Shown: one piece after another, positions 3,368 to 18,465 of the stretch
Position numbering within the stretch: the first letter of the stretch is position 1
Layout: every line of letters begins with the position of its first letter
Assembly: GCA_030040475.1 (NCBI GenBank)
Contig: JASHTQ010000234.1
Coordinates: forward strand, 1-23,265
Direction of reading: 5' to 3'
Length of the DNA: 23,265 nucleotides
Source of the DNA: Streptosporangiaceae bacterium
GTDB taxonomy: Bacteria > Actinomycetota > Actinomycetes > Streptosporangiales > Streptosporangiaceae
Position numbers and translations under genes: made by a program
The notes under the pieces: model-generated
Databases searched by the model: none
Seen by the model: the letters and a program-made list of their open reading frames with translations, nothing else
What the model was told of the DNA's origin: nothing

Positions 3368-3702
3368 TGATCGTGCGCTGATCATGCGCCGTCCGGCGGC
3401 CGACCCGGCTTTGCGCCATCCGGCGGCGGGTCGCTAACGTGGGACGGCGGACCCGGGGGGTCCAAGTAGACAACGTGCCGGCCGGGGAAGGCGGGCACGG
3501 CACCAACGGCCCCCCGGGTTCCGGCCCCCCGGGTTCCGGCCTCTCGGCTTGGCTCCGGCCTCTGGGGTTCCGGCCTCTCGGCTTGGCTCCGGCGCGCCGG
3601 CCCTGCCCGGCCTGGCCCTACCCAGCTCTGTCCGGCCTGGCCCGTCCGGCCTGGCCCTGCCCGGCTCGCGGCTTTCGGTGATTTTCGGGGGGTTGCCCGG
3701 AC
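3368..3702. repeat. GC-rich spacer with several short direct repeats
   Basis: This 335-base spacer lies between the ends of the convergent thioesterase and pdtaR genes. It holds a 16-base repeat TGCGCCRTCCGGCGGC at 3385-3400 and 3412-3427 (one mismatch). A perfect 29-base repeat occurs at 3531-3559 and 3565-3593 (period 34), preceded by two copies of CCCCCCGGGTTCCGG-like sequence. Three CCGGCCTGGCCC copies follow between about 3607 and 3656. An open 80-codon frame here (3439-3681) encodes only low-complexity Pro/Gly/Leu/Arg and is judged non-coding. The repeats are GC-rich and may fold into terminator-like structures for both convergent genes; no T-tract is seen. Confidence 0.6.
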
Positions 3703-4308
3703 TCAGGGTTGCGATGTTTCCGCGGGCATGTTCATGCTGCCCTCGATGACCGCCTCCGCCACCTTGCGCATCGTCAGGCGCCGGTCCATCGAGGTCTTCT
3801 GGATCCAGCGGAAAGCCTCGGGCTCGGTGAGCCCGTGCTGCGACTGGAGCAGGCCCTTGGCCCGGTCGAGCAGCTTGCGCACCTCAAGCCGCTCGCGCAG
3901 CGTGCCTATCTCCCCGTCGAGCGCCCGGATCTCGGCGAACCTGCTGACCGCCATCTCGATGGCCGGTATGAGGTCCGCCTTGGTGAACGGCTTGACCAGG
4001 TAAGCCATCGCCCCCGCGTCGCGTGCCCGCTCCACCAGTTCGCGCTGGGAAAAGGCGGTCAGGATAACGACGGGCGCGATCCGCTCGGCCGCGATCCGCT
4101 CGGCCGCGGAGATTCCGTCGAGCACCGGCATCTTGACGTCGAGGATGGCCAGATCCGGGTTCAGGCTGGTCACCCGCTCCACGGCCGATTCGCCGTCGCC
4201 GACCTCGGCGACGACCGAGTAGCCCTCCTCTTCCAGCATCTCCTTGAGGTCGAGGCGGATCAGCGCCTCATCCTCGGCGATGACGACACGCAACGGGTTC
4301 CTGGTCAC
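3703..4308 (-). CDS. pdtaR: ANTAR-domain response regulator (PdtaR-like)
   Basis: This is a 201-residue two-component regulator that acts on RNA rather than DNA. The receiver domain (8-122) is canonical: acidic patch AEDE at 10-13, phosphoacceptor Asp57 in ILDVKMP, Thr84 in ILTAF, and Lys106 in LVKPF. A helix leads to the ANTAR RNA-binding domain (about 137-190), with LLDRAKGLLQ and RKVAEAVI. In mycobacteria PdtaR is phosphorylated by the histidine kinase PdtaS, which is not in this window. ANTAR proteins bind paired-hexaloop RNAs to antiterminate. GTG at 4308 is used because the longer frame would begin inside the neighbouring tRNA gene, and this start gives the usual length of about 205. 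A 15-base tandem duplication at 4076-4105 encodes AAERI twice in the receiver domain; it looks tolerated. Confidence 0.93.
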   Translation of the reverse strand: MTRNPLRVVIAEDEALIRLDLKEMLEEEGYSVVAEVGDGESAVERVTSLNPDLAILDVKMPVLDGISAAERIAAERIAPVVILTAFSQRELVERARDAGAMAYLVKPFTKADLIPAIEMAVSRFAEIRALDGEIGTLRERLEVRKLLDRAKGLLQSQHGLTEPEAFRWIQKTSMDRRLTMRKVAEAVIEGSMNMPAETSQP

Positions 4309-4309
4309 G

Positions 4310-4338
4310 CTGACGAGCCTACCGTTGCCAGGTACATT
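4310..4338 (+). promoter_or_regulatory. Probable promoter of the tRNA gene
   Basis: CTGACG (4310-4315) and TACATT (4333-4338) are separated by exactly 17 bases, and a start near 4345 would precede the mature tRNA by about nine bases. The -35 box overlaps the 5' end of the divergent pdtaR coding region, so the two genes share a very short 45-base control region. Confidence 0.5.
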
Positions 4339-4353
4339 GTCATTCGTGCGTAC

Positions 4354-4427
4354 GCCCCGGTATGCCAATTGGTAGAGCACGCGGCCTCAAAAACCGTGCA
4401 GTGTGGGTTCGAGTCCCACCCGGGGCA
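4354..4427 (+). tRNA. tRNA with anticodon CAA (Leu by codon), short variable loop
   Basis: The 74-base gene has a perfect 7-bp acceptor stem (GCCCCGG / CCGGGGC), a T arm GTGGG-TTCGAGT-CCCAC, and the D-loop motif AATTGGTAG. The anticodon loop CTCAAAA (4386-4392) places CAA at 4388-4390. The discriminator is A, and CCA is not encoded. CAA would read the leucine codon UUG, but the variable region is only five bases (4398-4402), whereas tRNA-Leu normally has a long type II variable arm. The D stem is weak (three good pairs), and the anticodon stem has one G-U pair and a C-A mismatch next to the loop. It may be an unusual leucine tRNA, a non-translational tRNA-like gene, or a decaying copy. Its own promoter and terminator flank it, which suggests it is expressed. 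Confidence 0.8.
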
Positions 4428-4454
4428 CCCCGTGATCTCTCAAGACACGGAGGA

Positions 4455-4490
4455 CACCGCGAACCCTCATCGGGTCGCGGTGTTTTCCTT
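4455..4490 (+). terminator. Rho-independent terminator of the tRNA gene
   Basis: CACCGCG and ACCC (with one bulged A) pair with GGGT and CGCGGTG around a short TCAT-type loop, giving an 11-bp stem. It is followed directly by TTTTCCTTT. It begins 27 bases after the tRNA end. The T-tract is notable in such GC-rich DNA. Confidence 0.85.
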
Positions 4491-4581
4491 TCGGTCGAGC
4501 CACGGTGCCCGCGCGGCCTGATGCACACGGAAAGTGTCAACTTAACTCCATGTCGTGACGAATCCTGGTACTTTCCGTGAT

Positions 4582-4740
4582 ATGGACTCTACCGACAGTG
4601 ATAGCACGCAGGTCCCGCTTGCGCGGAGACTCCCTGTCGCCGCTGACCCGATTCGCAACGGTTGCCCGGTCTACCGGCGAGCGTGGGACTCAGGCGACAG
4701 GTGGGAGACGCCGGCCGGGGGGATAGGGATCCGGCCGTGA
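4582..4740 (+). CDS. Small unrecognised ORF before the HNH-like gene
   Basis: A 52-codon frame begins at ATG 4582 (a GTG at 4555 would add nine codons). Its product begins MDSTDSDSTQVPLARRL and contains no domain I recognise. Its TGA overlaps the GTG start of the next gene as GTGA, the arrangement of translationally coupled genes. No good ribosome-binding site is visible before either start. It may be a leader peptide, an upstream extension lost by frameshift, or chance. The 4491-4581 stretch before it is relatively AT-rich and could hold a promoter, but I cannot define one. Confidence 0.25.
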   Translation: MDSTDSDSTQVPLARRLPVAADPIRNGCPVYRRAWDSGDRWETPAGGIGIRP

Positions 4741-5234
4741 CGGCCGCCCGCCCCGAGGGCTGGGAATCCGCGCTCGGGGTCCGGGCCGATCCGGTGACCC
4801 TTACCGGATTCCAGCTCGCGCCCCAGCGGCCGGACGCCGCGACGCGCAGGCTCGTGCTCGCGCGCGACGGCTGGCGGTGTGTCTGCTGCGGCGTGTCCGT
4901 CATCGGGAAGCCCTACAGCCTCCAGCCCAGAAAGAGCATGAGCCAGGGCGGCGACAACTCGCCGTCGAACCTGATCACGGTCCTGGGACGCAGCGGGCAG
5001 CTGTGCTGCGGTCGTATTGAGTCCCGCCGCGACCCGGCCGACGAGGCGGCTGGCTTCTGGATCGGGCCCGGGGAGGAACCCCGCTCCGACCCCCGTTGCA
5101 TCCCGATCGCGCTTGCCAGCCCCGGAGGACCCCGGATCACGGTGTGGCTGACTCCTGACGGCCACTACAGCACCCAGACGCCGGAAGTGCGTCCCCGGCC
5201 AGGCCGGCCAGGCCGGCCAGCGCCTGGCGGATGA
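4737..5234 (+). CDS. HNH-nuclease-like protein with the key His replaced
   Basis: This 165-residue product has a core LARDGWRCVCCGVSVIGKPYSLQPRKSMSQGGDNSPSNLITVLG followed by CC-GRIESR, which matches the layout of small HNH endonuclease-like proteins common in actinobacteria and their phages. Cys48, Cys50, Cys51, Cys90 and Cys91 could bind zinc, and Asn79 sits at the expected N position. Where relatives have the first catalytic His (LQHR) this copy reads LQPR, so Pro64 probably abolishes metal-dependent cleavage. GTG at 4737 is chosen because AGGGA lies seven bases upstream and because the preceding small frame stops there with a 4-base overlap. An ATG at 4662 in the same frame is possible. 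The C terminus is a low-complexity RPGRPGRP tail. Function is unknown; it may be a relic of a mobile element. Confidence 0.55.
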   Translation: MTAARPEGWESALGVRADPVTLTGFQLAPQRPDAATRRLVLARDGWRCVCCGVSVIGKPYSLQPRKSMSQGGDNSPSNLITVLGRSGQLCCGRIESRRDPADEAAGFWIGPGEEPRSDPRCIPIALASPGGPRITVWLTPDGHYSTQTPEVRPRPGRPGRPAPGG

Positions 5235-5269
5235 TCGCGGCCTCCGACACGGTGTGACGGATTCCCGGC

Positions 5270-5284
5270 CCGGCCTCGAGCCGG
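5270..5284. terminator. Short hairpin between convergent genes (weak terminator candidate)
   Basis: CCGGC and GCCGG pair around a five-base CTCGA loop in the 51-base gap between the convergent HNH-like and PP2C genes. There is no T-tract and the stem is only 5 bp, so support is positional. Confidence 0.25.
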
Positions 5285-5285
5285 A

Positions 5286-6164
5286 TCACTCGGCGGTGTA
5301 CGCCTTAACGGACACGGTGGGCGTGTATGCGGGGTCCGGCGCGTCCGGCCTCGGATACGTGATCAGGACGACGGTGATGTTGTCGGCACCGCCGGCGTCG
5401 ATCGCGAACTGCACCAGCCGCACGGCGGTGCCGTGCGGATCGGTCAGCGCGGCCGACGTCGCCAGCCCGGCCAGGTCGGCCGCCTCGGGCAGGTAGTTCC
5501 ACAGGCCGTCCGAGCACACCATGAGGACCCCGGGACCCGGCGGCGAGAACCGCTCCACGTGCGGCGCGCGGTCGGGGTCGTCGGCCAGGTCGCTGGCGTC
5601 TCCGCCGAGCCACCGGGTCAGCACGTGCGCGTGCGGGGAGGCCATCGCGGTCGCCTGGTCGGCCAGGCCGGCCGCGATCATCCCTCCCGCGACCGAATCG
5701 TCCATGGTCAGCTGGCGCGACTCGGAGGCCGACCAGGCGAGCCAGTAGGCGCGGCTGTCGCCCAGCCAGCACAGGGTCACCTCGTCTGCGGTCGCGACAG
5801 CCGAGACGAACGTGGTGGCCGCCGTGTCGCCAGAGGGTCCCTGCAGCCCGGCGATCGTTTCCCGCGCCGCCTGCACCGCGGCCCGTGACGCCTCGGTCAG
5901 GTCCTCCCCCGCCTGCGCCGCGGCCAGCAGGCGCGGCACCGTGACCCGGGCCGCGGCGAGCGACGCCTCGTCGGGCCTGGCCGCAGTGGAGACTCCGTCG
6001 CAGACCACGGCTACCAGCACCGGGCCATTCGGGGTCTGCTGTGCCTCCAGCGCCATCGCGTCCTCGTTGCGGGCATGCCGCAACCCACGGTCGCTGACTC
6101 CGGCGGCGGCATCGAGGGCGATTTCGGCCCGGTCGCGCGACGGCGAGATGTCGATCATGTGCAT
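5286..6164 (-). CDS. PP2C-family Ser/Thr protein phosphatase (intact)
   Basis: This 292-residue metal-dependent phosphatase removes phosphate from Ser/Thr residues. All the PP2C motifs are in order: RNED (32-35), VVCDGVS with Asp56-Gly57, GDSRAYW with Asp136, CSDGLW with Asp219, and GADNITVVL with Asp261-Asn262. There is no membrane segment, so it acts in the cytoplasm. It is the last gene of the signalling operon, but it is separated from the upstream FHA gene by 196 bases that include AT-rich sequence, so it may also have its own promoter. ATG 6164 is preferred because GAGG lies nine bases upstream; ATG 6158 is an alternative. Its intactness contrasts with the gutted PP2C gene at 8307-8759, so it probably supplies the phosphatase function of this cluster. 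Confidence 0.93.
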   Translation of the reverse strand: MHMIDISPSRDRAEIALDAAAGVSDRGLRHARNEDAMALEAQQTPNGPVLVAVVCDGVSTAARPDEASLAAARVTVPRLLAAAQAGEDLTEASRAAVQAARETIAGLQGPSGDTAATTFVSAVATADEVTLCWLGDSRAYWLAWSASESRQLTMDDSVAGGMIAAGLADQATAMASPHAHVLTRWLGGDASDLADDPDRAPHVERFSPPGPGVLMVCSDGLWNYLPEAADLAGLATSAALTDPHGTAVRLVQFAIDAGGADNITVVLITYPRPDAPDPAYTPTVSVKAYTAE

Positions 6165-6360
6165 ACGTTAGTGCCTCGGAACGCCCCGGTTGTGCGCCGA
6201 TGCGCCATCGCTCACTTCCGTGTCGTGGACAACCCCTGAATCCGGGCCGGCCTGGTCCGTCGATCGCCTGGGACCACATGTTTCGGTCACGTGTTCGATG
6301 ATACGGCATATTCAGCAGAAAAGTAGTGCCTGACAGAGATTTTGCGGCCCTTTTGCAGTG
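6165..6360. other. Non-coding gap with possible promoter before the PP2C gene
   Basis: This 196-base gap follows the FHA stop. It is AT-richer than its surroundings near 6300-6360. On the minus strand TATCAT (6298-6303) could be a -10 box, but I see no convincing -35 box at 16-18 bases. No T-tailed hairpin is evident after the FHA gene. Confidence 0.35.
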
Positions 6361-6963
6361 CTAGCCGCGGTGGACGGTGATCGCGGTCCAGGCGCCGAGG
6401 TTGATGCAGTCGCCGTCGTGCAGCGGAACCTGATCGCCGACCCGCACTTCCGTGCCGTTGAGCAGGGTGCCGTTGGCGGAGCCTGGATCGAGGACGGCCC
6501 AGCCGCCGTCGAGCGCGATCAGGACCGCATGCAGGCGGCTGATACCCGGGTCGACCGGCGGACCGGTCAAGTCGATCTCCGGCTCCAGCCCGCGGGACAC
6601 GCTGTGGCGCCCGATCCGCATCTGGGCCCCGGCGAGGCGGAAGCGGCGTTCGGCGTAGTAGGCGGGGAAGCCGATGGCCGCACCCTCGGTTCCGCTGGCC
6701 GCCCGGACCTGGTCGTAGTAGGCGCGATCCGCGGCCACCACCGCGGTCCAGGTGACGCAGGCGTCCGCACCGGGCGCCGGCGCCTGCGGCGCGCCCTGAC
6801 CGGCCGCGAGGCCGCCGGTGGGCATCGCGCCGGTCGGGAATGCGCCGGTAGCGGAGGAGGGTGCCGGCGCCTGCGGGTTGCCGGGACTGGCGGCAATGCG
6901 TATGCCGCACACATCGCAGAAGTCATCGCTCGCCGAATCATGACCGTTCTGGCATACCGCCAT
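6361..6963 (-). CDS. Zinc-ribbon FHA-domain protein (short paralogue)
   Basis: This 200-residue protein has three parts. An N-terminal zinc ribbon (Cys4, Cys16, Cys19 in CQNGHDSASDDFCDVCG) is followed by a Pro/Ala/Gly linker (25-68) and a C-terminal FHA phosphothreonine-binding domain. The FHA core shows GRHS (118-121), SRLHA (143-147) and GSANGTLLNG (161-170). FHA domains dock onto proteins phosphorylated by Ser/Thr kinases. ATG 6963 is chosen because GGAGG lies five bases upstream; a GTG at 6987 is possible. It sits 33 bases after the VWA gene in the operon. Its FHA half is close to that of the longer protein at 11019-12185 (shared LDPGSANGTLLNG, NLGAWT.ITVHRG), so one arose by duplication. 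It lacks the phosphorylatable ETTS-type N terminus of mycobacterial GarA. Confidence 0.92.
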   Translation of the reverse strand: MAVCQNGHDSASDDFCDVCGIRIAASPGNPQAPAPSSATGAFPTGAMPTGGLAAGQGAPQAPAPGADACVTWTAVVAADRAYYDQVRAASGTEGAAIGFPAYYAERRFRLAGAQMRIGRHSVSRGLEPEIDLTGPPVDPGISRLHAVLIALDGGWAVLDPGSANGTLLNGTEVRVGDQVPLHDGDCINLGAWTAITVHRG

Positions 6964-6996
6964 CGCCGCCTCCGACCCTTCTGCCACCTCGCCGCG

Positions 6997-8310
6997 TTAG
7001 GACTGGACCTTCTTTACCCTGACCGTCTTCGTCGACCTCGTGTCCAGGGCCATCTCGTCCACGTCCTCGACCTTCTTCTTCAGCCGGACGGTACCGGTCT
7101 GCGCGTCGACGACGTCGACCACCTTGGCGAGAAGCCTGGCGGTGTCCTCGTTGCCCGACTGGTGGGCCAGCGCCACGGCCCGGCCCAGCTTGGCGGCGGC
7201 GACCTCCTCGCTGCCCTGCTTGCGGGCCTCCAGGCCCTCCTGTATCGCGTCGGCGAGTTCGGCCTGGCCGGTGTAGTGGGCGACCAGTGGGTTGATCTTG
7301 GTGGACAGCGCCTCGTCGTCGGTCCAGATGGCGCGGACAAGCCCCTGTCCGAGGACTTCGGCGGCCGACGGCGGGCCGACCACCAGGCTGACCCGCGCGG
7401 CCAGCATCTCCTGCCCGACCCCCGCCGGGTTGACCTCGACGCCGACGTGATAGTCGCGGCTCTCCCCCGGACCCCACGCCCCCGTCGGGTAGTCGCCGGC
7501 CTGCGGGCCGGACGGCGTGCGCCTGGCGGTCAGGTCGTCCACCGTCGGCGCGACCTGCTTGACGAACCGGAGGGTCGCGTGCTGCGGCGTCCACACCCGC
7601 AGGGCCACGTCGGCAACCTGCTTGCCCATCGCGCTGCGCATCATGGCCGCGAAGTCGGCGGCCAGCCCGGACGGGTCGGGCACGATGTCCACCGTGCCGA
7701 GCAGCGCGGTCGATATCGTGCGCAGCTCGCCGACTTCCCAGTCGGTTCCCACGCCGCGGCAATCGCAGCTGAAGATGCCCTCGCACTGCCGGAGCGCGGC
7801 GAGGAGCTGATCGGGGGTCTCGTGCTGGTTCTTCCCGTCGGTCAGCAAGATGGCGTGCCGCAGCTGAGCCGGGTACGCCGAGAGGATCTGGCGGGCCAGG
7901 CTCAGCCACTGGCCGATCGCGGTGCCGCCGCTGGCTCGCAGGCCCGTCACCGCCTGCCTGGCCGCCGCTCGCGAGGAGGCGTCCGCGATCGCCATGCTCC
8001 CGTCGGGAGGGAAGACGGGCCAGGCGGTATTGGTGCCCGCGATGACCGAGAACCACACGCCGTCGCGGACGACATCGATCGCGGCGGCGGTGGCTGCCCG
8101 CGCCTCGGCGATCTTGGTGTGCGGATACTCCATCGACCCGGAGCAGTCGATGATGATGATCTCCGCGCTGGCCGGGGTCCCCGCCGCAGCGGCAGGAACA
8201 GCGGCGGCGTCGGCCGAGGAGGTCACGGTGACGATCGCGCTGACGTCTCGCCCGCCTTCTGGCAGGTACTGGTTCTGGTCGACATCCACGGTGAAGCCGG
8301 ACTGGGTCAT
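6997..8310 (-). CDS. VWA-domain protein with intact MIDAS
   Basis: This 437-residue protein carries a von Willebrand factor A domain (about 49-230). Its metal-ion-dependent adhesion site is complete: Asp55-x-Ser57-x-Ser59 in IDCSGSM, Thr130 in GGTAIG, and Asp158 in LLTDGK. A beta-rich middle and a helical C-terminal region follow (GRAVALAHQSGNEDTARLLAKV), ending with a very basic tail (VRLKKKV, KTVRVKKVQS). No signal peptide or membrane helix is visible, so it is cytoplasmic and probably a scaffold for protein complexes. The ATG overlaps the stop of the upstream PP2C remnant by four bases (ATGA), and GAGGAG lies nine bases before it. In related actinobacterial clusters such VWA genes accompany PP2C, FHA and PknG-type kinase genes; here it is one of the few full-length members. 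Confidence 0.9.
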   Translation of the reverse strand: MTQSGFTVDVDQNQYLPEGGRDVSAIVTVTSSADAAAVPAAAAGTPASAEIIIIDCSGSMEYPHTKIAEARAATAAAIDVVRDGVWFSVIAGTNTAWPVFPPDGSMAIADASSRAAARQAVTGLRASGGTAIGQWLSLARQILSAYPAQLRHAILLTDGKNQHETPDQLLAALRQCEGIFSCDCRGVGTDWEVGELRTISTALLGTVDIVPDPSGLAADFAAMMRSAMGKQVADVALRVWTPQHATLRFVKQVAPTVDDLTARRTPSGPQAGDYPTGAWGPGESRDYHVGVEVNPAGVGQEMLAARVSLVVGPPSAAEVLGQGLVRAIWTDDEALSTKINPLVAHYTGQAELADAIQEGLEARKQGSEEVAAAKLGRAVALAHQSGNEDTARLLAKVVDVVDAQTGTVRLKKKVEDVDEMALDTRSTKTVRVKKVQS

Positions 8311-8759
8311 TGCGCAGTTCTCCTCGGTGACGTCTGCGGCCTGGCGAGCGGGAACGGTGCCAGCACCACGGTGATGTTGTCCATGCCGCCGGCGTCGAGC
8401 GCGACCTTCAGCAGCGCGGCGGCCTGCGTCAGCGACCCCTGAGCGACCTGCACCGCGGCCCGGGCCGCGGCGGGCGAGGCGTCGTCGGGGCGGGGAGAGC
8501 TCGACACGCCGTCGCAGACCACCGTGATCGCGACCGGGCCGGACGGGGTCTGCGCCGAGGCGAGCGCCATCGCGTCCTCGTTCCGCTGATGCCGCAGGCC
8601 GCGGTCGGTGACCCCGGCGAGCGGGCCGAGGTCGAGCTCGGCGTGGTCGCGTCCGGTGGGCTCCTTGCGGCCGCACGACTCGCAGAAGCCGTCGCCCGCG
8701 TCGACCGGCTCCCCGCAGGCCGGGCAGCTGCCCCCGGTCGGGTTGCCCGGCGCGGTCAT
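8307..8759 (-). pseudogene. PP2C phosphatase with catalytic middle deleted (zinc ribbon plus two ends)
   Basis: The 150-residue product starts with a zinc ribbon (CPACGEPVDAGDGFCESCG, 15-33) and then the PP2C N-terminal motifs GLRHQRNEDAMAL and VVCDGVS. After only about 35 more residues it jumps to the PP2C C-terminal end, ALDAGGMDNITVVL. Compared with the intact paralogue at 5286-6164, roughly 150 residues are missing, including the GDSRAYW and SDGLW motifs that hold metal and substrate. The frame is kept through the junction. It is probably not a phosphatase, but the zinc ribbon and the open frame remain, so it may still be translated. It overlaps the upstream PknG remnant and the downstream VWA gene by four bases each (ATGA). 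An assembly collapse is another explanation. Confidence 0.75.
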
Positions 8760-9007
8760 GTCAGCAGCCCGGCCCCGAGCCTGCCCCGTGCGGCGCGGCT
8801 GGTGGCGTGCCGGGAGCGCGTGGACCGGCCGCCCGCCGCCCTGCTGCCGCCGCTTGCCGTGGGCTGGGACCCCGAGGAGGTGGACGCCGCGGGCGCGGGA
8901 GCCGGCGGGCCCGCGACGGCAGGCGCCATCCCGCACGTGTCGCAGTAACCGTCCTGTATCGTCCCGCCGCAGCCGGGCTGGGTGCAGCCGACCGCGGCCG
9001 CGCTCAC
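8756..9007 (-). pseudogene. N-terminal remnant of a PknG-like kinase (zinc ribbon only)
   Basis: The 83-residue product begins with CTQPGCGGTIQDGYCDTCGM (8-27), a four-Cys ribbon. A low-complexity Pro/Ala/Ser/Arg linker follows, ending in RGRLGAGLLT. In actinobacterial PknG-like kinases, as I recall the family, exactly this ribbon and an Arg/Ser linker ending in RLGAGL precede a second zinc ribbon, the kinase domain and TPR repeats. None of that follows here: a TGA ends the frame and overlaps the ATG of the PP2C remnant. GTG at 9007 overlaps the stop of the coiled-coil gene (GTGA). The simplest reading is a large deletion that removed the kinase and joined its first exon-like segment to the PP2C gene. 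A genuine small zinc-ribbon protein is the alternative. Confidence 0.65.
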
Positions 9008-10242
9008 CGCGTGCCTCCGATCGCCAGGACGGCCTGCTGGTAGCCGGTCACCGCGGCCTCCGCGGCCGCGAGGTCGCACGGCGCCGTCCACAGCAGGCCG
9101 TGAGCGCGGTTGTAGCGTTCGGTCAGTCCGGAGTCTTCGGCGGCGCCCAGCCTGGCCGCCTTGGCCTGGTAGGCCTCGAGCAGCCCGCGCAGTTCCTCGC
9201 GCCGGTTCAGCAGGGCCAGCGCCGCTCGTTCGGTATCGCGGAACTGGGCCGTGGCCGCGGCCAGCCCGTGTTCGACCTGGTCGAGCTCGGCGGACAGCCT
9301 GGGCCAGCGGCCGGCCGCCAGCAGCGCGTCGAGGCCGGCCAGCCGGGCGGACAGGTCCGCGATGTCGGGAGGCTGCGGGGGAAGCGCCTCGGCGGCGAAC
9401 TTCTCCGCCGCCCGCTGCCGAGCCGCGACGGCGTCGTCGCGGGCGGCGCGGGCGGCCGCGGCGGCGGCCACTGCCTCGGCGAGGCGATCCCTGGCGTCGT
9501 CCCGCAGCCGGACCAGCTCGTCCATCCGCGCCGCGACGGCGGCGACCCGCTCTCGCAGCTGGTCAGCGCCGGAGGTATCGACGCTCGCGCGGCCCTGGTC
9601 CGAATTGCCCCGCCACAGGGAGAGCGGATCGGTGTTCAGCACGTCGCGCAGCCGGGCCAGCGTGCCCTCCGCCGCCGACAGGTTGCCTGCCAGGGCCTCG
9701 TCCCCGAGCGTGCTGCCCAGCCGCGGCATCCGGGCGAGCTGCTCGGCGGCGGCGTCAAGCGGCCCCGCCATCTCGTTCCATACCCGCTCCGCCGCGGTGA
9801 CCACCTCGGTGAGGTCGGCGAAGGACCGCCTCATCCTGGCGACCGTCTGCGTCAGGGTCAGCTGCTCGCGGCCGCTGTCGGCCAGGTCGCGCCCGGCCAG
9901 CGGGGCCAGCGGGTCCGGACTGCGGTCGAGCCGGACGGACGTCCCGGCGAGCAGCTCGGTCACCTGCACAAGTTCCTTGGGCCCGAGCCGTCCCGCGACG
10001 ACCTCTGCGGCCCGGTCGACAACCCCCGAGTACGCCGAGTACAGATCCCACAGGTTGGCCAGCGTCCGCGCGGCCTTGTCCCAGCGCACCTTGGTCTGGC
10101 CGGTGAGCGCCGCGCCCGCGAGCAGCCGCTTGCCGAAGCTCCCGTCGAGCTCGAGCAGGTTCGCCTGGATGACGTCGCGCTCGCTGACCGCTCCCTGCAC
10201 CGCGGCGGCCGCCTGCTCCTTGGTCAGCGGCTGGATGCTCAT
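9004..10242 (-). CDS. Coiled-coil protein of GlnX/PknG-type clusters
   Basis: This 412-residue, Ala/Arg/Leu/Glu-rich protein is almost wholly helical. There is a long heptad-like stretch at about 230-300 (LRERVAAVAARMDELVRLRD and following) and another at 300-370. It has no signal peptide, membrane helix or catalytic motif. The C-terminal EAYQAKAARLG and GLLWTAPCDLAAAEAAV match, from memory, a hypothetical protein found again and again beside GlnX-like and PknG-like genes in Streptomyces and relatives. Its role is unknown; an adaptor between the membrane sensor and the kinase is a reasonable guess. ATG 10242 overlaps the upstream gene's stop (ATGA), and its own TGA overlaps the next GTG. It appears full-length, unlike both neighbours. 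Confidence 0.8.
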   Translation of the reverse strand: MSIQPLTKEQAAAAVQGAVSERDVIQANLLELDGSFGKRLLAGAALTGQTKVRWDKAARTLANLWDLYSAYSGVVDRAAEVVAGRLGPKELVQVTELLAGTSVRLDRSPDPLAPLAGRDLADSGREQLTLTQTVARMRRSFADLTEVVTAAERVWNEMAGPLDAAAEQLARMPRLGSTLGDEALAGNLSAAEGTLARLRDVLNTDPLSLWRGNSDQGRASVDTSGADQLRERVAAVAARMDELVRLRDDARDRLAEAVAAAAAARAARDDAVAARQRAAEKFAAEALPPQPPDIADLSARLAGLDALLAAGRWPRLSAELDQVEHGLAAATAQFRDTERAALALLNRREELRGLLEAYQAKAARLGAAEDSGLTERYNRAHGLLWTAPCDLAAAEAAVTGYQQAVLAIGGTR

Positions 10243-10892
10243 CGGTACTCCGCGAGCCGACGGGACAGCCCCCACGCGCAGCCGGCCGCCATCCCGAGCG
10301 CCAGCACGATGACGCCGGCCTCCAGGCCGGCGAACGCGCCGCGGCCTGCGTCCGCGTTCGACGCGAAGACGGCCTGGTTCGACGCGATCGCGGCGTCCAG
10401 GTCGCCGGAGAGCTTGCCGAACAGGGTCGCGGCGGTGCCCGGGCCCGACCCGATGACGAGCTGGGTCTCCGCGCCGTAGCTGCTTGCCTTGTCGAGCGCC
10501 TGCACCCGCTCGTTGACCGCGAACCAGGCGTCGGCCTCGCTCCTGGCTGCGGCGACCGGGCCGGCACCCGCGGCCGCGCTGTGCGCCGAGGCGTCCGCGA
10601 GCAGCGCGTTCAGCCTGCTCTGGTCCGGGAAGCCCAGCGAGTTGCAGATCTCGCCGTCCTCGACATAGCCGGTGTAGACGGGCAGCGCCTGGGTCAGCGC
10701 GGCAAGGCTTGCGCCGACGCTCGAATTGCCGCTCGCGGCCGTCGCCGCCCTCAGGTCGGCTGCGGCCACCGCCACGTCGTGCTGATAGCGCTCACGGTCG
10801 CTGAACGGCGGTGTCCGGCCGACCAGGTACCCGGCGGACACGGCCCCTCGTCCGGGGGAACGTTGCGGACCCCGGGTAGCCGTCGCGCTCAT
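10239..10892 (-). pseudogene. Shortened GlnX-like membrane sensor
   Basis: The 217-residue product carries pieces of the GlnX-like family that, in mycobacteria, works with GlnH and PknG in amino-acid sensing. One piece is GYLVGRTPPFSDRERYQHD followed by LTQALPVYTGYVED (an extracytoplasmic helical segment). The other is the C-terminal VQALDKASSYGAETQLVIGSGPG region with one membrane helix (LEAGVIVLALGMAAGCAWGL) and RRLAEYR. Full-length relatives, from memory, have an N-terminal membrane helix and further helices in the middle; both are absent. Two in-frame deletions are inferred, near residue 20 and near residue 88 (NSLGFP|DQSRLN). Without the first helix the sensor segment may not be exported. 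ATG 10892 is used; its ribosome-binding site is weak. Its stop overlaps the coiled-coil gene by four bases. Confidence 0.6.
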
Positions 10893-11018
10893 TTCCGATC
10901 CGCCATGCCCCGCTCCCGCCACCGGAAAGGCACCCGCAATGACGCCTCTATTTTGCCCGCACTTAAGTACTCCTTGGGGTCAACGGGGAGAGACGTATCG
11001 GGGTTCACGCCGGTGCGG
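10893..11018. other. Gap between the FHA gene and the GlnX-like gene
   Basis: The 126-base gap includes an AT-rich part near 10945-10985. On the minus strand TTGACC (10979-10984) could be a -35 box, but the nearest AT-rich -10-like sequence (AAAATA) is about 22 bases away, so I do not call a promoter. Confidence 0.25.
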
Positions 11019-12185
11019 CTAGCCGCGGTGCACCGTGATCACGGTCCAGGCGCCGAGGTTGATGCGGTCGCCGTCCTGAAGCGGGACCAGGTCCCCCACC
11101 GGTATCTCGCGCCCGTTGAGGAGCGTGCCGTTGGCCGAGCCCGGATCCAGAACTCCCCAGCTGCCGTCCGCGGTGGCGATAAGGACCGCGTGCAGGCGGC
11201 TGACGCCCGGGTCGGTGGGCGGGTCGGCCAAGTCGATCTCCGGCCTGAGACTGCGTGCCGCGCTGCGCCGGCCGATCCGCATCTGCTTTCCACCGAGCGC
11301 CAGCCGCCGTTCGCCGCTCTGCGCGGGAAACTCGACCGATGGGCCGTACAGGCTCCTGGTGGACTGCATGCTGTCGTAGTAGGCACGATCCGTGCCGACC
11401 ACGATGGTCCAGCTGTGCGGGGTGAACACCGGTATGGGCGTGGTCGGTGAGGCCGATGACGTAGACGGCACCCGAGGCACCGGCGGCGCGGGCTGGCCCT
11501 TGGGCGGCGGGGGCGGCACCAGGCGATCCGGCGCGGCAGGCGGCGATTCCGGCCTGGCCAGCGGCGGTGCCTCGGCCGGAAGCGCGGCCTCGGGTGGGGA
11601 TGGCGGCCGCGGTTGCGCCGAACCCGTGGGCTCCTCGGCCGGTACCGGCTGAGCGGGCGGTGACGGCGGCTCAGCCGGAAACGTCCGGGCGAACTGGGCC
11701 CGCGGCGGCATCGGCGGCGGTACCGACGGCGGCTCAGGCGGGACGGTGCGGGCGAACTGAGCCGGCGGCGGCATCGGCGGCGGCTCCGGGGGGACGGTGC
11801 GGGCGAACTGGGCAGGCGGCAACGGCCTGGCTACGGGCGGGAACAGAGACTCGGGCGGACGGGACCGGGAGACCGGCGCGGCAGGCATGGGCGGGACGGT
11901 GGACGGCGACGGCACCGCAGACTCAGACGGGACTTGGCGGGGGCTCGTTGCGGTGGCCTCGTGCGTTCCGACACGGAAGCCGCACCAGTCGCAGTACTCG
12001 CCGGACACGGCGGAACTGCAACGGGGACAGGACGCCGCCGCGGCCGCGGCAGCGGCCGGCCTGGGCGCGTGGTGCTTCCCTGCCAGCCGGGCCTGGCCGG
12101 AAGCCGGGCTTGCGGGCATCCGCGTTCCGCAGACGTCACAGAAGTCAGCGCTCGCCGACTCGTGACCATTCGGACATGCATTCAT
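11019..12185 (-). CDS. Double zinc-ribbon, proline-rich FHA-domain protein
   Basis: This 388-residue protein has an N-terminal zinc ribbon (CPNGHESASADFCDVCG, 4-20), an Ala run (44-51), and a second ribbon (Cys53, Cys56, Cys65, Cys68). A Pro-rich linker of about 170 residues then contains AQFART three times (starting at 125, 142 and 163). A C-terminal FHA domain has GRRS (305-308), SRLHA (329-333) and GSANGTLLNG (349-358). The FHA domain should bind phosphothreonine proteins; the linker suggests a flexible tether or a scaffold. ATG 12185 is used; GTG 12191, six bases after AAAGGG, is an alternative. It is the first gene after gltD on the same strand, 146 bases away. In mycobacteria the FHA protein GarA activates glutamate synthase, so this gene is a candidate regulator of GltBD. 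Confidence 0.92.
   Translation of the reverse strand: MNACPNGHESASADFCDVCGTRMPASPASGQARLAGKHHAPRPAAAAAAAASCPRCSSAVSGEYCDWCGFRVGTHEATATSPRQVPSESAVPSPSTVPPMPAAPVSRSRPPESLFPPVARPLPPAQFARTVPPEPPPMPPPAQFARTVPPEPPSVPPPMPPRAQFARTFPAEPPSPPAQPVPAEEPTGSAQPRPPSPPEAALPAEAPPLARPESPPAAPDRLVPPPPPKGQPAPPVPRVPSTSSASPTTPIPVFTPHSWTIVVGTDRAYYDSMQSTRSLYGPSVEFPAQSGERRLALGGKQMRIGRRSAARSLRPEIDLADPPTDPGVSRLHAVLIATADGSWGVLDPGSANGTLLNGREIPVGDLVPLQDGDRINLGAWTVITVHRG
11663..11816. repeat. In-gene repeat encoding AQFART/PPEPP units
   Basis: Three coding repeats in the FHA linker begin 51 and 63 bases apart. Each encodes AQFART followed by VPPEPP or FPAEPP and a Met/Pro spacer. The first two copies are nearly identical, so the expansion looks recent. 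Confidence 0.7.
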
Positions 12186-12331
12186 CCCCACACCGGACCC
12201 TTTAGACCAAAATCGCGCCTTCGCCACCTTCAGACTACGTATCCACCGGTTTTTCGCCGGGTGTTCGTTAGATTACGTCCTGCCCGAACTCGCTCGGGTC
12301 GCAGGCGGCGGGATCCGTCAGGCCGCGGGGA
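12186..12331. other. gltD to FHA-gene spacer, presumed operon promoter
   Basis: This 146-base spacer has two weak inverted repeats: CCCGA/TCGGG at 12283-12298 and CACC-GG/CCGGGTG around a T5 loop at about 12244-12263. The 12186-12275 part is AT-richer than the genes and is the natural place for the promoter of the signalling operon, but no consensus pair can be named with confidence. Confidence 0.3.
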
Positions 12332-13786
12332 TCAGGCCAGCGGGCGGGCGGTCGGCGGAATCGGGGCCGGCAGCGCGGCGTCGCCGCCATCTGCGGCCAG
12401 GTAGCGGTCGACGGCGGCGGCGGCGCTGCGCCCCTCGGCGATCGCCCAGACGATCAGCGACTGGCCCCGGCCCATATCGCCGGCGACGAACACGCCGGGC
12501 ACCGACGTTGCGTACGAGCCGTCCCTGGCCACGTTGCCCCGCTGGTCGAAGTCGACGCCGAGGCCGGCGAGCAGGCCGGGTCGTTCGGCTCCGGTGAACC
12601 CCATGGCCAGCAGCACGAGGTCGCAGGGCAGCTCGCGCTCGGTGCCAGGCACCGGGTCGAACCCGGCGGCGTCGGCGAGCCGCAGCGCCCGCAGCCTGCC
12701 CGCGTCGCCGAGGAACTCAAGCGTGGTCACCGCGTAGGCGCGCTCGCCACCCTCCTCGTGCGCGCTCGAGACACGGTAGGTCATCGGGTAGGTCGGCCAG
12801 GGCTGGTGACCGGGCCGCGAGGCGGGCGGCCGCGGCAGGATTTCCAGCTGCGTCACCGACGCCGCCCCCTGCCGGTGCGCGGTGCCCAGGCAGTCCGCGC
12901 CGGTGTCGCCGCCGCCGATGATGACCACGTGCCGCCCGCGCGCGCTGATGGCGGGCTCGGCAGGGTGCACCGGGTCGGCGGCCACCACCCGGTTGGCCAG
13001 CGGCAGGTACTCCATGGCCTGGTGAATCCCGTCCAGCGAGCGTCCCGGCAGCGGCAGGTCCCTGGGAACGCGGGCACCGCCGCACAGCACCACCGCGTCG
13101 AAGGACGCCCGCAGTTCGCCGGCCGTGATGTCGGTGCCTGCCTCAACGCCGCAGCGGAACTCGGTGCCCTCGGCGCGCATCTGGCCCAGCCGCCGGTCCA
13201 GGTGCCGCTTCTCCAGCTTGAACGCGGGAATTCCGTACCGCAGCAGCCCGCCGGGCGCGTCGTCCCGCTCGAAGACCGTCACCGCGTGCCCGGCCCTGGT
13301 CAGCTGCTGGGCCGCCGCGAGCCCGGCCGGACCCGATCCGATCACCGCTGCCGAGCGGCCCGACCGGATGGCCGGGGGCAGCGGGACCACCCACCCCGAC
13401 GCGAAGGCCCGGTCGATGATCTCCACCTCGACCTGCTTGATCGTGACGGGCTCTGAGTTGATGCCGAGCACGCAGGCGGCCTCGCACGGCGCTGGGCAAA
13501 GCCGCCCGGTGAACTCGGGGAAGTTGTTGGTAGCGTGCAGCCGGTCCGCCGCGTCCCGCCAGTCGTGCCGCCAGACCAGGTCGTTCCATTCCGGGATCAG
13601 GTTCCCCAGCGGGCAGCCGTTGTGGCAGAACGGGATGCCGCAGTCCATGCACCGGCCCGCCTGCCGTTCCAGCCGGCTCGCGGGGAACGGCTCGTACACC
13701 TCGCGCCAGTCCCGCAGCCGCAGGTCGACCGGGCGCCGGGCCGGGGTCTCTCGCGACGTTGACATGAAGCCCTTCGGGTCAGCCAT
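12332..13786 (-). CDS. gltD: Glutamate synthase (NADPH) small subunit
   Basis: This 484-residue FAD/NAD(P)H flavoprotein passes electrons from NADPH through iron-sulphur centres to GltB, so that glutamine plus 2-oxoglutarate becomes two glutamates. The N-terminal 4Fe-4S region has CMDCGIPFCHNGC (Cys46, 49, 54, 58) and GRLCPAPCEAAC (Cys97, 101, 105). The FAD-binding GSGPAG (150-155), the NADPH-binding IIGGGDTGADC, and the closing FAD motif VFVAGDMGRGQSLIVWAIAEGR are all present, so the subunit looks complete at the usual length. ATG 13786 lies nine bases after the gltB stop, with GTGAGG seven bases upstream overlapping that stop, so the two are translated together. Identification is certain. 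Confidence 0.97.
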   Translation of the reverse strand: MADPKGFMSTSRETPARRPVDLRLRDWREVYEPFPASRLERQAGRCMDCGIPFCHNGCPLGNLIPEWNDLVWRHDWRDAADRLHATNNFPEFTGRLCPAPCEAACVLGINSEPVTIKQVEVEIIDRAFASGWVVPLPPAIRSGRSAAVIGSGPAGLAAAQQLTRAGHAVTVFERDDAPGGLLRYGIPAFKLEKRHLDRRLGQMRAEGTEFRCGVEAGTDITAGELRASFDAVVLCGGARVPRDLPLPGRSLDGIHQAMEYLPLANRVVAADPVHPAEPAISARGRHVVIIGGGDTGADCLGTAHRQGAASVTQLEILPRPPASRPGHQPWPTYPMTYRVSSAHEEGGERAYAVTTLEFLGDAGRLRALRLADAAGFDPVPGTERELPCDLVLLAMGFTGAERPGLLAGLGVDFDQRGNVARDGSYATSVPGVFVAGDMGRGQSLIVWAIAEGRSAAAAVDRYLAADGGDAALPAPIPPTARPLA

Positions 13787-13795
13787 TGCCGCGCC

Positions 13796-16700
13796 TCACC
13801 CGTGCGCCGCGGCCATGACGGCCTCGTCGACGTCCCGGCCCTCGCGCTGCGCCTGCGAGGCGGCGGACAGGACCCGCTTGTAGTCCTTCGGCATGACCTT
13901 GGTGAACCGGCTGACGTCCCAGTCTGCGAGCAGCCGCGCCGCGACCGCCGAGCCCGTCTGGTCGAGATGGCGCTCGACCACATCGCGCACGAACGTTGCG
14001 TCGTCGATCGAGTCGAGCGGCTCCAGGTCGACCATCTCCATGTTCACCCGAATCTCCGGCAGGTCGAGCACGTAGGCGATGCCGCCCGACATGCCGGCCG
14101 CGAAGTTACGCCCGACCGGGCCGAGGATCACCACTCGACCTCCCGTCATGTACTCGCAGCCGTGGTCGCCGGTGCCCTCCGCGACCGCGAGCGCGCCGGA
14201 GTTCCGGACGCAGAACCGCTCGCCGACGATGCCGCGCAGGAACATCTCCCCGCTCGTCGCGCCGTAGCCGATCACGTTGCCGGCGATGATCTGCTCCTCG
14301 GCCGCGAACGCCGCCTCACCCAGGGGCCGGACGACAAGCCGGCCGCCGGACAGCCCCTTGCCGAGATAGTCGTTGGCGTCGCCGTGCAGCCGCAGCGTGA
14401 TGCCGCGCGGCAGGAAGGCGCCGAAGGACTGGCCGGCCGAGCCGCGGAACGAGATGTCGATCGTGCCGTCAGGCAGCCCCTCACCGCCCCAGCGGCTGGT
14501 CACCTCGTAGCCGAGCATGGTGCCCACGGTCCGGTTCACGTTCCGTATCGGCAGCTCGAGCCGGACCGGGGTGCCGTCGGCGAGCGCCCCCTCGGCGAGC
14601 TGGATCAGCGTGTTGTCCAGCGCCTTGTCCAGCCCGTGATCCTGCCCGGTGACGCAGCGGGTGGCCGCTCCCTCCGGCAGCGACGGCTGGAAGAGCACCG
14701 GCGACAGGTCCAGGCCCGAGGCCTTCCAGTGGTCGACGGCAAGCGCCGCGTCCAGCAGGTCCACCCGGCCGACGATCTCCTCGATCGACCGGAAGCCCAT
14801 CATGGCCAGGTACTCCCTGACCTCCTCGGCGACGAACTCGAAGAAGTTCACCACGAACTCCGGTTTCCCGCTGAACCTGGCCCGCAGCTCCGGGTTCTGG
14901 GTGGCCACGCCGACCGGGCAGGTATCCAGGTGGCAGACCCGCATCATGATGCACCCAGAGACCACGAGCGGCGCGCTGGCGAACCCGAACTCCTCCGCGC
15001 CGAGCAGCGCCGCGATGATCACGTCCCGGCCGGTCTTCAGCTGCCCGTCGGCCTGCACGACGATCCGGTCGCGCAGCTTGTTGCGCAGCAGCGTCTGCTG
15101 GGTTTCCGCCAGGCCGAGCTCCCACGGCGCGCCGGCGTGCTTGATCGAGGTCAGCGGCGCCGCGCCGGTGCCGCCGTCGTGCCCGCTGATCAGGACGACG
15201 TCGGCGTGCGCCTTGGACACCCCGGCGGCCACCGTGCCGACCCCGACCTCGGCCACCAGCTTGACGTGCACCCGGGCGGCCGGGTTGGCGTTCTTAAGGT
15301 CGTGGATCAGCTGGGCGAGGTCCTCGATCGAGTAGATGTCGTGGTGCGGCGGCGGCGAGATCAGGCCCACGCCCGGCGTGGAGTACCGCGTCTTGGCGAT
15401 CCACGGGTACACCTTGTGCCCGGGCAGCTGGCCGCCCTCCCCCGGCTTGGCGCCCTGCGCCATCTTGATCTGCAGGTCGTCGGCGTTGACCAGGTACTCG
15501 CTCGTCACGCCGAACCGGCCGCTTGCGACCTGCTTGACCGCGGACCTGCGCAGGTCGCCGTGCCCGTCCGGGACGAACCGCTCCGGGTCCTCGCCGCCCT
15601 CCCCGGTGTTCGACCGCGCGCCCAGCCGGTTCATCGCGATCGCCAGCGTCTCGTGCGCCTCGGCCGAGATCGACCCGTAGGACATGGCCCCCGTCGCGAA
15701 CCGCCGTATGATGCTGGCGGCCGGCTCCACATCATCAATTTTCAGCCGAACGGGAGGTGGCGCGCCGGCCGGGTCCGCGGCCTGCGCCGAGGGGTCAACG
15801 CCGCGGATGCGCAGCAGCCCGCGCAGCGTCATCAGCCGCCGGGACTGGTCGTTGACCAGCGACGTGTACTCCTTGAAGATCTCGTACCTGCGGCTGCGGG
15901 TGGCGTGCTGGAGCTTGAAGACGGCCTCCGGGCTGAACAGGTGCGGCTCGCCCTCCCGGCGCCACTGGTACTCGCCTCCTGTGTCGAGCCGGCGGTAGGC
16001 CATGCCCGCGCTGCCCAGGGCGCGGCCGGTGCGCAGGGCGGTCTCGGCGGCGAGCGCGTCGAAGCCGACGCCGGACAGCCGCGACGTCGTGCCCGCGAAA
16101 CAGGTGTCGACCACCTCGGCGCCCAGGCCGATGGCCTCGAAGATCTGCGCGCCGGTGTAGGACGCGACGGTGGACACGCCCATCTTGGACATGATCTTGA
16201 GTAGCCCCTTGCCCAGCGCCTTGAGCAGGTTGGCCTCCGCCTTCTTCTCGCTGACCCCGGTGATCACGCCGCGCCTGACCAGGTCCCTGACCGACTCGAT
16301 GGCCAGGTACGGGTTGACCGCCGCCGCGCCGTAGCCGATCAGCAGCGCCACGTGATGACACTCGCGGACGTCCCCCGCCTCGACCACGAGACCGGCCCGG
16401 GTCCGTGACTTCTCCCTGATCAGGTGGTGATGCACGGCACCAGTGAGGAGCAGCGACGGAATCGGGGTGAGGGAGTCGGCGGGGACGCGCATCCGGTCGG
16501 AGAGGATGATGAGGCGGGCGCCGGCGGTTATGGCGGCGGAGACTTCGGCGCAGATCCCGGCCAGGCGGGCGCGGAGGGCCCGGCCGCCGCCGCGGGGGTC
16601 GTAGCGGCCGTCGACCACGTGCGAGGCCAGGCCGGGCAGGTTGCCGCCGTCGTTGATGTGCACGATCTTGGCCAGGTCCTGGTCGCCGATGACCGGGAAG

Positions 16701-18406
16701 GGCAGCACGATCTGGCGGCAGGACGCCGGGATCGGGTCAAGCAGGTTCTGCTCGGGGCCGGCGATCGTGCCGAGCGAGGTGACGAGCTCCTCCCGGATCG
16801 CGTCCAGCGGCGGGTTGGTGACCTGGGCGAACAGCTGGGTGAAGTAGTCGAACACGAGCCGCGGCCGATCCGACAGCACCGCGACGGGCGTGTCCGTGCC
16901 CATCGACCCGATCGCCTCCGCCCCGGTGCGCGCCATCGGCGCGAGGATGACCCGCAGCTCCTCCTCGGTGTACCCGTGCATCCGCTGCAGGGCGACGAGA
17001 TTGGAATGAAACCCCGGATCCAGCACACCAGGAGGTGCTGAATCCCCGTTTTCATTGCGCGGGCTGCGGGCGGCTAGCACGTCGGGGAGGTCGTCTAGGT
17101 GGACCAGGCCGGCGTGCAGCCAGGACTCGTAGGGGTGCTCGGCGGCCAGGGCGGCCTTGACGTCCTCGTCTTCGACGATGCGGCCCGACGCGGTGTCGGC
17201 GAGGAAGACCCGGCCGGGCTGGAGGCGGCCCTTCCTGACCACGGTGGCGGGGTCGAGGTCGAGCACGCCGACCTCGCTGGCCAGCACGACGAGCCCGTCG
17301 CTCGTCACCCAGTACCTGCCGGGGCGCAGGCCGTTGCGGTCAAGCACCGCGCCGATCACCGAGCCGTCGGTGAACGCGATCAGCGCCGGGCCGTCCCACG
17401 GCTCCATCAGCGCGGCGTGGAACTGGTAGAACGCGCGGCGCTCGGGAGTCATCTCCTCGTGGTTCTCCCACGGCTCGGGGATCATCATGAGCACCGCGTG
17501 CGGCAGCGAGCGGCCGCCCATGTGCAGCAGCTCGAGGCACTCGTCGAAGCTGGCCGAGTCGCTGGCGGACTCGTCCAGGATGGGGAACAGCCGCTCGAGG
17601 CCCTTCCCGTCCCGCGAGGCGGGGATCAGGTCGCTGGCCAGCATCGCCTCCCTGGCCCGCATCCAGTTGCGGTTCCCCCTGATCGTGTTGATCTCGCCGT
17701 TGTGGGCCACGTAGCGGTACGGGTGGGCGAGCGGCCAGGAGGGGAACGTGTTGGTGGAGAACCTGGAGTGCACGAGCGCCAGCGCGGAGCCGTAGCGGGG
17801 ATCGGCCAGGTCGGGGTAGAACGGCCCGAGCTGCGTGGCGGACAGCATGCCCTTGTACCCGATCGTCCGCGCGGAAAGGCTGGCGAAGTACGCCCCCGCC
17901 TCGTGCTCGGCGCGCTTGCGCAGGCAGAACACCATCCGCTCGAGCTCGATACCGGACTGGCCCGCGTCGCCAGCCACGAACAGCTGGACCAGCTCCGGCA
18001 TGACCGCGCGGGCGCCCGCCCCGCAGGCCGAGGCGTCGTGCGGGACGTCGCGCCAGCCGAGCACGGTCAGCCCCTCGGCCTCGGCGAGCCTTTCGACGGC
18101 GCGTGTCACCACCGCTCGTTCGGCAGCAAAAATAAAGGCCATGCCGGCCGCGTACGTGCCAGCCGCGGGCAGCGCGAAACCACAGGCGGCGCGGAAGAAC
18201 TCGTCGGGAACCTGCGTCAGGATGCCCGCGCCGTCCCCGGTGTCCGGGTCGCCGCCCTTGGCCCCCCTGTGATCGAGGTGGCGCAGCACCCGCAGGGCGC
18301 GGTCCACCACGTCGTGACCGCCGCGGCCGGACAGGTCCGCGACGAAACCGACGCCGCACGCGTCGTGCTCAAACCGGGGATCGTAAAGGCCAGCAGCAGC
18401 CGCCAT
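13796..18406 (-). CDS. gltB: Glutamate synthase large subunit
   Basis: This 1536-residue subunit does the chemistry: glutamine hydrolysis, ammonia tunnelling and reductive amination of 2-oxoglutarate on FMN. A short propeptide ([15 protein letters not shown]) precedes the catalytic Cys17 in [16 protein letters not shown]. The type II amidotransferase domain covers about 1-420, followed by the central domain, then the FMN barrel with [10 protein letters not shown] and [19 protein letters not shown]. The 3Fe-4S cluster motif [15 protein letters not shown] is near residue 1160, and the C-terminal beta-helix domain has GEMFLRG and [24 protein letters not shown] 18406 is chosen over 18457 because AGGAGA lies a few bases upstream and the propeptide begins there. 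It starts 59 bases after the lgt-like gene. No frameshift or missing motif is seen. Confidence 0.97.
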
Positions 18407-18465
18407 GCGCTCTCCTGTCGTCTCGATACGCCTGTTCACGTGCGTCCGGGACGACATTGGCCCTG

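What the first reader, a model, noticed from the sequence alone, without database searches (positions are those of the whole stretch)
5286..12185. A signalling operon whose core parts were cut out while frame and coupling were kept
In one run of minus-strand genes, the GlnX-like sensor lacks its first and middle membrane helices, the PknG-like gene keeps only its zinc ribbon, and one PP2C lacks its catalytic middle. Yet the coiled-coil, VWA, both FHA proteins and a second PP2C are intact. The damaged genes keep open frames, and five consecutive genes still overlap by four bases. Random decay would be expected to bring stops and frameshifts. Either selection preserves a reduced, kinase-less complex (zinc ribbons plus scaffolds), or in-frame deletions are very recent, or the assembly collapsed.
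Basis: partly seen in the sequence, partly recalled or inferred. Interest (0 to 1): 0.75.

Follow-up and report, generated by a model that had tools for sequence, protein, structure and literature searches.

The report
A bacterial signalling operon being lost
In what looks like an uncultured actinomycete, a set of genes for sensing amino acids has lost large internal pieces; relatives at the same chromosome position carry it whole, differently broken, or not at all, so it looks like a dispensable operon decaying by deletions rather than a working slimmed-down machine.

Summary
After gltB-gltD on the minus strand lie FHA, GlnX-like, coiled-coil, PknG-like, PP2C, VWA, FHA and a second PP2C. GlnX lacks TM1 and TM2-TM3. 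PknG keeps only an extra N-terminal zinc ribbon. The first PP2C lacks its catalytic middle and has a collapsed double zinc ribbon. That makes at least five deletions, frames open, with four 4-base overlaps kept.

Of 13 genomes I examined after gltD, 4 have the full operon, 2 show GlnX and then the contig ends, G049 is differently broken, G195 (closest) keeps only the last PP2C, and 5 show none in the stretch held. The parts kept differ, zinc ribbons included, and G049 also has frameshifts, so no fixed reduced complex is conserved. Shared words of 8 or more bases in these genes are mostly in frame, so in-frame joints are partly expected; at 3-6 bases the bias is weaker.

Length-limited protein searches show many other in-frame-deleted GlnX and PknG alleles.

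Best reading: stepwise, recent loss of a dispensable PknG/GlnX-type operon. Assembly artefact is not excluded: one MAG has four 'NN' joins in this operon, and no reads were available.

The parts
11019..12227 (-). FHA1: zinc-ribbon, Pro-rich linker, FHA domain; intact, directly after gltD
   Evidence: Pfam FHA 7.8e-13; an FHA gene also precedes GlnX in G196; not there in L001 or L005
10239..10892 (-). GlnX-like remnant; lacks the TM1 part and the TM2-TM3 part, keeps the last TM; two in-frame deletions
   Evidence: NCBIfam GlnX family 108.6 bits, below the 250 cut-off
9004..10242 (-). Coiled-coil protein, intact (coiled coil judged by eye)
   Evidence: 56% to L001 over 407 aa; no NCBIfam name
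8756..9007 (-). PknG-like remnant: extra N-terminal zinc ribbon and linker, then the last codons; rubredoxin, kinase and TPR missing
8307..8759 (-). PP2Ca remnant: collapsed zinc ribbon, PP2C N-part, last about 35 residues; catalytic middle missing
6997..8310 (-). VWA protein with VWA_3_C domain, intact
   Evidence: about 75% to L001 and L003
6361..6987 (-). FHA2, zinc ribbon plus FHA, intact
5286..6164 (-). PP2Cb, intact, about 200 bp after FHA2; the only one of these genes found in the slot of G195
   Evidence: Pfam PP2C_2 43.4 bits; 72% to G195; shared leader
12332..13786 (-). gltD, intact flank
13796..18457 (-). gltB, intact flank
3703..4380 (-). Response regulator (ANTAR type, recalled), other flank of the slot
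   Evidence: 90% to G195

Best explanation
A PknG/GlnX-type signalling operon beside gltBD is dispensable in this lineage of Streptosporangiaceae-like actinomycetes and is being lost piece by piece through internal deletions. The window is an early, recent stage: sensor, kinase and one phosphatase are already inactive (inferred), the other genes are intact, and no stops or frameshifts have yet accumulated. In-frame joints come partly from codon-phase bias of short homologies in GC-rich genes, perhaps helped by selection against polar effects on the translationally coupled VWA and FHA genes (inferred). Shown: the missing pieces in the assembled sequence, the intact gltBD flank, and the slot series full / differently broken / PP2C only / absent. 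Inferred: that the DNA is truly deleted in cells, loss of function, and the deletion mechanism.
For: Slot series, 13 genomes chosen by me (of 47 of 52 handles with an orthologous GltD; G002 included). Full operon in 4: G001, G002 (PP2C in another order), G004, G336. G335 and G339 show GlnX and then the contig ends. G049 is differently broken: GlnX tail only, coiled coil lacking residues 83-222, half a PknG ribbon plus tail, frameshifted VWA, 22 residues of FHA. G195 has only PP2Cb between gltD and the response regulator. None in the stretch held of 5: G050, G194, G197 (gltD to regulator), G340 (1.8 kb) and G341 (4.5 kb). On a tree of flanking proteins, window, G195 and G001 (full) group at 0.995 and G049 groups with full-operon genomes at 0.998, so breakage probably arose at least twice (inferred). 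G195 has no coiled-coil, GlnX or PknG-tail match in its 4.3 Mb. Length-limited protein searches: 12 of 20 PknG-ribbon hits join ribbon to tail in frame; 24 of 63 scored GlnX hits have internal gaps of 20 or more columns, the window's own P0001 among them and several alignments ambiguous. P0203 is counted on 7 contigs. Control: orthologous GltD (69% identity or more) in 47 of 52 genomes; 42 are end to end, none shows an internal deletion, 3 lack one end (G035, G063, G210), 2 carry an insert (G052, G053). The PP2Ca remnant (83 residues) is more diverged than G001's intact copy in 4 of 5 comparisons, whereas intact VWA is less diverged in 4 of 4: a weak sign of relaxed constraint.
Against: All five window joints keep an open frame, and if junction homologies are only 3-6 bases the expected in-frame share is 0.39-0.54 each, so frame may be selected. 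No stops or small frameshifts in the window. None of 80 VWA-bearing loci, 70 of them from named strains and 10 MAGs, shows PknG core loss: 70 have coverage of at least 0.95, 5 on short contigs have no match, 4 are cut, 1 (L003) has NN joins. The sister placement of G195 has support 0.45 only. The 5 'none' genomes may never have had the operon there. Searches scored only part of the first-look candidates in each genome.
Confidence: 0.6

Rival explanations
1. Assembly or library artefact: short-homology joins during gap closing or amplification removed pieces from a full-length operon.
For: L003, a MAG of a relative, has four N runs in 14,686 bases, each 2 bases long, all within the coiled-coil to PknG stretch of this operon; at two of them parts of the genes are missing. 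No deletion allele among the 80 VWA loci. Several lesions per gene without point decay. The zinc-knuckle joint of PP2Ca lies in a repeated motif of about 20 bases (read by eye). In G336 the highest-GC stretch (0.86) is the PknG N-terminal linker, near one joint.
Against: gltB and gltD are untouched. In L001 the deleted kinase stretch is less GC-rich (0.65-0.68) than the kept coiled coil (up to 0.82). Most joints look shorter than assembler k-mers (inferred from distant relatives). G195 joins gltD to a conserved PP2Cb leader. In-frame-deleted GlnX forms lie on contigs of about 0.36 Mb (P0007, P0068) and, by eye, of 0.86 and 0.51 Mb (P0018, P0052).
Confidence: 0.27
2. Selection preserves a reduced, kinase-less complex of zinc ribbons, coiled coil, VWA and FHA proteins.
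For: Open frames, kept 4-base overlaps, intact coiled coil, VWA and FHA in the window; remnants still similar to relatives (82% to G001 over 83 residues of PP2Ca).
Against: No conserved reduced set: G049 lost half a ribbon, part of the coiled coil, most of FHA and has a frameshifted VWA; G196's second pknG lost its ribbon; G195 has only PP2Cb in the slot.
Confidence: 0.1

Closest known systems
PknG-GlnX-GlnH signalling system (GarA/OdhI control) of mycobacteria and corynebacteria
   Same: Full-length relatives carry GlnX (NCBIfam NF058618), PknG with rubredoxin, kinase and TPR (PF16919, PF00069, PF16918; PDB 2pzi) and a GlnH-like binding protein (PF00497). Titles and abstract starts of PMC9769921 and PMC6069109 seen.
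   Different: The window lacks kinase, TPR and rubredoxin and most GlnX helices, and has no GlnH match; relatives add coiled-coil, PP2C, VWA and FHA genes.
Operon loss by successive deletions in bacteria (pseudogene decay; recalled)
   Same: Same slot shows full, broken and absent states in related genomes.
   Different: Here the window lesions are large and keep frames open, without stops or small frameshifts.

Membership tests
PknG kinase | Rubredoxin, protein kinase and PknG TPR domains | tested here: not met
   Window 83-aa product: no Pfam family at E 1e-3; full-length L005 has all three
GlnX family | Score above NCBIfam NF058618 cut-off 250 over 413 positions | tested here: not met
   Window 108.6 bits; L005 331.1 bits
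PP2C phosphatase (PP2Ca) | Complete PP2C domain with middle motifs | tested here: not met
   Only zinc-ribbon models at E 1e-3 in Pfam; 32 bits against a cut-off of 230 in NF033484 (intact L001 PP2C also misses that cut-off with 97 bits)
PP2C phosphatase (PP2Cb) | Complete PP2C domain | tested here: met
   PP2C_2 43.4 bits, cut-off 24, profile 10-185 of 209
PknG-GlnX-GlnH system | GlnH solute-binding gene present | tested here: not met
   No GlnH match in the window; no whole genome held, so other loci untested
Decaying operon | Intact copies at the same slot in relatives | tested here: met
   G001, G002, G004, G336
Decaying operon | Different lesions or absence in other relatives | tested here: met
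   G049, G195 and others
Decaying operon | Relaxed selection on remnants | tested here: inconclusive
   Amino-acid identity only: PP2Ca remnant lower than G001's intact copy in 4 of 5 comparisons over 83 residues; GlnX remnant has no fair control; dN/dS not computed

The most novel reading that the evidence does not exclude
This operon is a hot spot of recurrent, frame-kept internal deletion across soil Streptosporangiaceae-like bacteria, with dozens of different GlnX and PknG alleles, because loss of this signalling is repeatedly favoured (for example by nutrient niche or phage pressure on the membrane sensor) while translational coupling to downstream genes must be kept.
Probability: 0.17. 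Interest if true: 0.62.

Novelty: new member of a known kind. Interest (0 to 1): 0.33.

Why it matters
It shows how a coupled signalling operon can be lost stepwise without frameshifts, and that in-frame internal deletions in GC-rich, codon-biased genes are weak evidence for selection. If the deletions are real, relatives of well-studied actinomycetes do without the PknG switch of glutamate metabolism. If they are artefacts, many GlnX and PknG protein records are wrong.

Tried and rejected
GC drop-out as the sole cause: not favoured, because in L001 the deleted kinase DNA is less GC-rich than the kept coiled coil, though G336 has a GC peak at the PknG linker. A second full PknG as the reason for relaxed selection: shown in G196; other genomes with more than two matches (G336 among them) were not examined, G049 has one match and G195 none. 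The in-frame excess in protein searches was not used as proof of selection, because those searches admit only 0.55-1.75 times the query length and so miss full-length and long out-of-frame products. PP2C hits are mostly cut or frame-shifted, with few in-frame internal deletions (120 of 231 hits listed); the output was cut, so P0107-P0141 were not read by eye. Exact junction homologies could not be read: no close DNA relative with full genes is held. Literature: 14 papers hold the terms, 10 listed; 0 papers; 12 papers, 10 listed; listings and abstract starts seen, no paper opened, so no claim is made that this is unpublished. Structure prediction was not used.

Full report
What is there. The window's minus strand runs trpC, trpB, trpA, lgt, gltB, gltD, then FHA1 (11019-12227), GlnX-like (10239-10892), coiled coil (9004-10242), PknG-like (8756-9007), PP2Ca (8307-8759), VWA (6997-8310), FHA2 (6361-6987) and PP2Cb (5286-6164), followed by a response regulator; a plus-strand thioesterase-like ORF, galM and a polA fragment lie beyond (flank names other than gltBD recalled). 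Four joints, GlnX-CC-PknG-PP2Ca-VWA, overlap by four bases.

What is missing. The named MAG records L001 and L005 have full-length GlnX (482 and 470 aa), PknG (824 and 841 aa) and, in L001, PP2C (385 aa); GlnX, coiled coil, PknG, PP2C and VWA follow in the same order, with a GlnH gene after GlnX in L001 only. Against these, window GlnX keeps residues 110-186 and 348-470 of L005. PknG keeps an N-terminal zinc ribbon that precedes the PknG rubredoxin, plus its final codons. PP2Ca has lost about 45 residues between two zinc knuckles and the catalytic middle. Frames stay open through all joints; for PknG the tail is too short to prove it. Family tests fail for the three remnants and pass for PP2Cb, FHA and VWA.

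Chance and frame. In intact GlnX, PknG, PP2C and coiled-coil genes of L001 and L005, the in-frame share of exact shared runs at least 150 bases apart is 0.33 at 1 base, 0.39 at 3, 0.54 at 6, 0.67 at 8 and 0.81 at 10 (per gene). Joints at long homologies would be in frame by default. Joints at 3-6 bases would not, so the five window joints leave room for selection on frame.

Relatives. In 341 genomes of one family, 237 match the coiled coil and 243 match a PknG ribbon-plus-tail query; each call scored only part of its first-look candidates. Of 52 chosen handles 14 match a full-length GlnX. After gltD the operon is full in G001, G002, G004 and G336, begins with GlnX and then the contig ends in G335 and G339, is broken in G049, is reduced to PP2Cb in G195, and is absent from the stretch held of G050, G194, G197, G340 and G341. 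G049 has only a GlnX tail not in frame with the start (read by eye; one search gives an open frame of 90 codons), an in-frame gap in the coiled coil, a PknG product with half a ribbon and the tail, frameshifts in VWA and 22 residues of FHA, beside intact gltB, gltD and PP2C. G196 has a full PknG, and after the coiled coil a second pknG cut to start and tail without the ribbon. A tree of flanking proteins puts window and G195 (support 0.45 together) with G001 (0.995), and G049 elsewhere.

Other alleles. Length-limited searches found 69 GlnX-like, 231 PP2C-like (120 listed) and 20 PknG-ribbon proteins. Of the 20, 12 join ribbon to tail in frame. Of 63 GlnX proteins scored, 24 have internal gaps of 20 or more columns, the window's own among them and some ambiguous. 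Fusions across genes also occur by eye: P0052 (GlnX to PknG tail) and P0171 (PP2C to FHA). Full-length forms cannot appear in these searches, so no frequency follows.

Constraint. Over 83 homologous residues the PP2Ca remnant is 79% to G049 (G001's intact copy: 77%), 73% to G336 (81%), 72% to G196 (81%), 68% to G004 (72%) and 56% to G005 (58%). Intact VWA of the window is higher than that of G001 in 4 of 4 comparisons, coiled coil in 4 of 5, GltD in 2 of 3. This hints at mild relaxation of the remnant but is weak.

Artefact or real. For artefact: the four NN joins of L003 in this operon and the absence of core loss in the 80 VWA loci. For real deletion: intact gltBD, the slot series, poor fit to GC peaks in L001, GltD without internal deletion in 47 of 47 orthologues, and P0203 counted on 7 contigs. 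I weigh this about 0.6 to 0.27.

Function. The parts kept differ between window, G049, G196 and G195, so I rate it 0.1. The most likely state is a dispensable operon in recent decay.

Noticed in passing
L145 (G196 contig C572), reverse strand 3453-7415: Two pknG genes in one operon: a full one (813 aa) before the coiled coil and a tail-only remnant after it.
   Followed up: partly
L003 1428, 1769, 2493, 2770: Four 2-base N joins, all in the coiled-coil to PknG stretch of the same operon in a public MAG.
   Followed up: yes
P0171 and P0052: In-frame gene fusions seen by eye: PP2C start joined to an FHA domain at a shared 'RAY' stretch, and GlnX start joined to the PknG tail on a 513-kb contig.
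   Followed up: no
window about 6164-6185 and L151 about 2575-2600: PP2Cb has a conserved short leader (GGCACTAACGTAT..CATGATC) in window and G195, suggesting its own promoter.
   Followed up: partly
window 4662-5234, plus strand: ORF with a CVCCG..SNLITVLG pattern resembling an HNH nuclease (recalled, not tested).
   Followed up: no
L111, minus strand, VWA region about 6735-8034: VWA of G049 carries frameshifts beside an intact PP2C and gltBD.
   Followed up: partly
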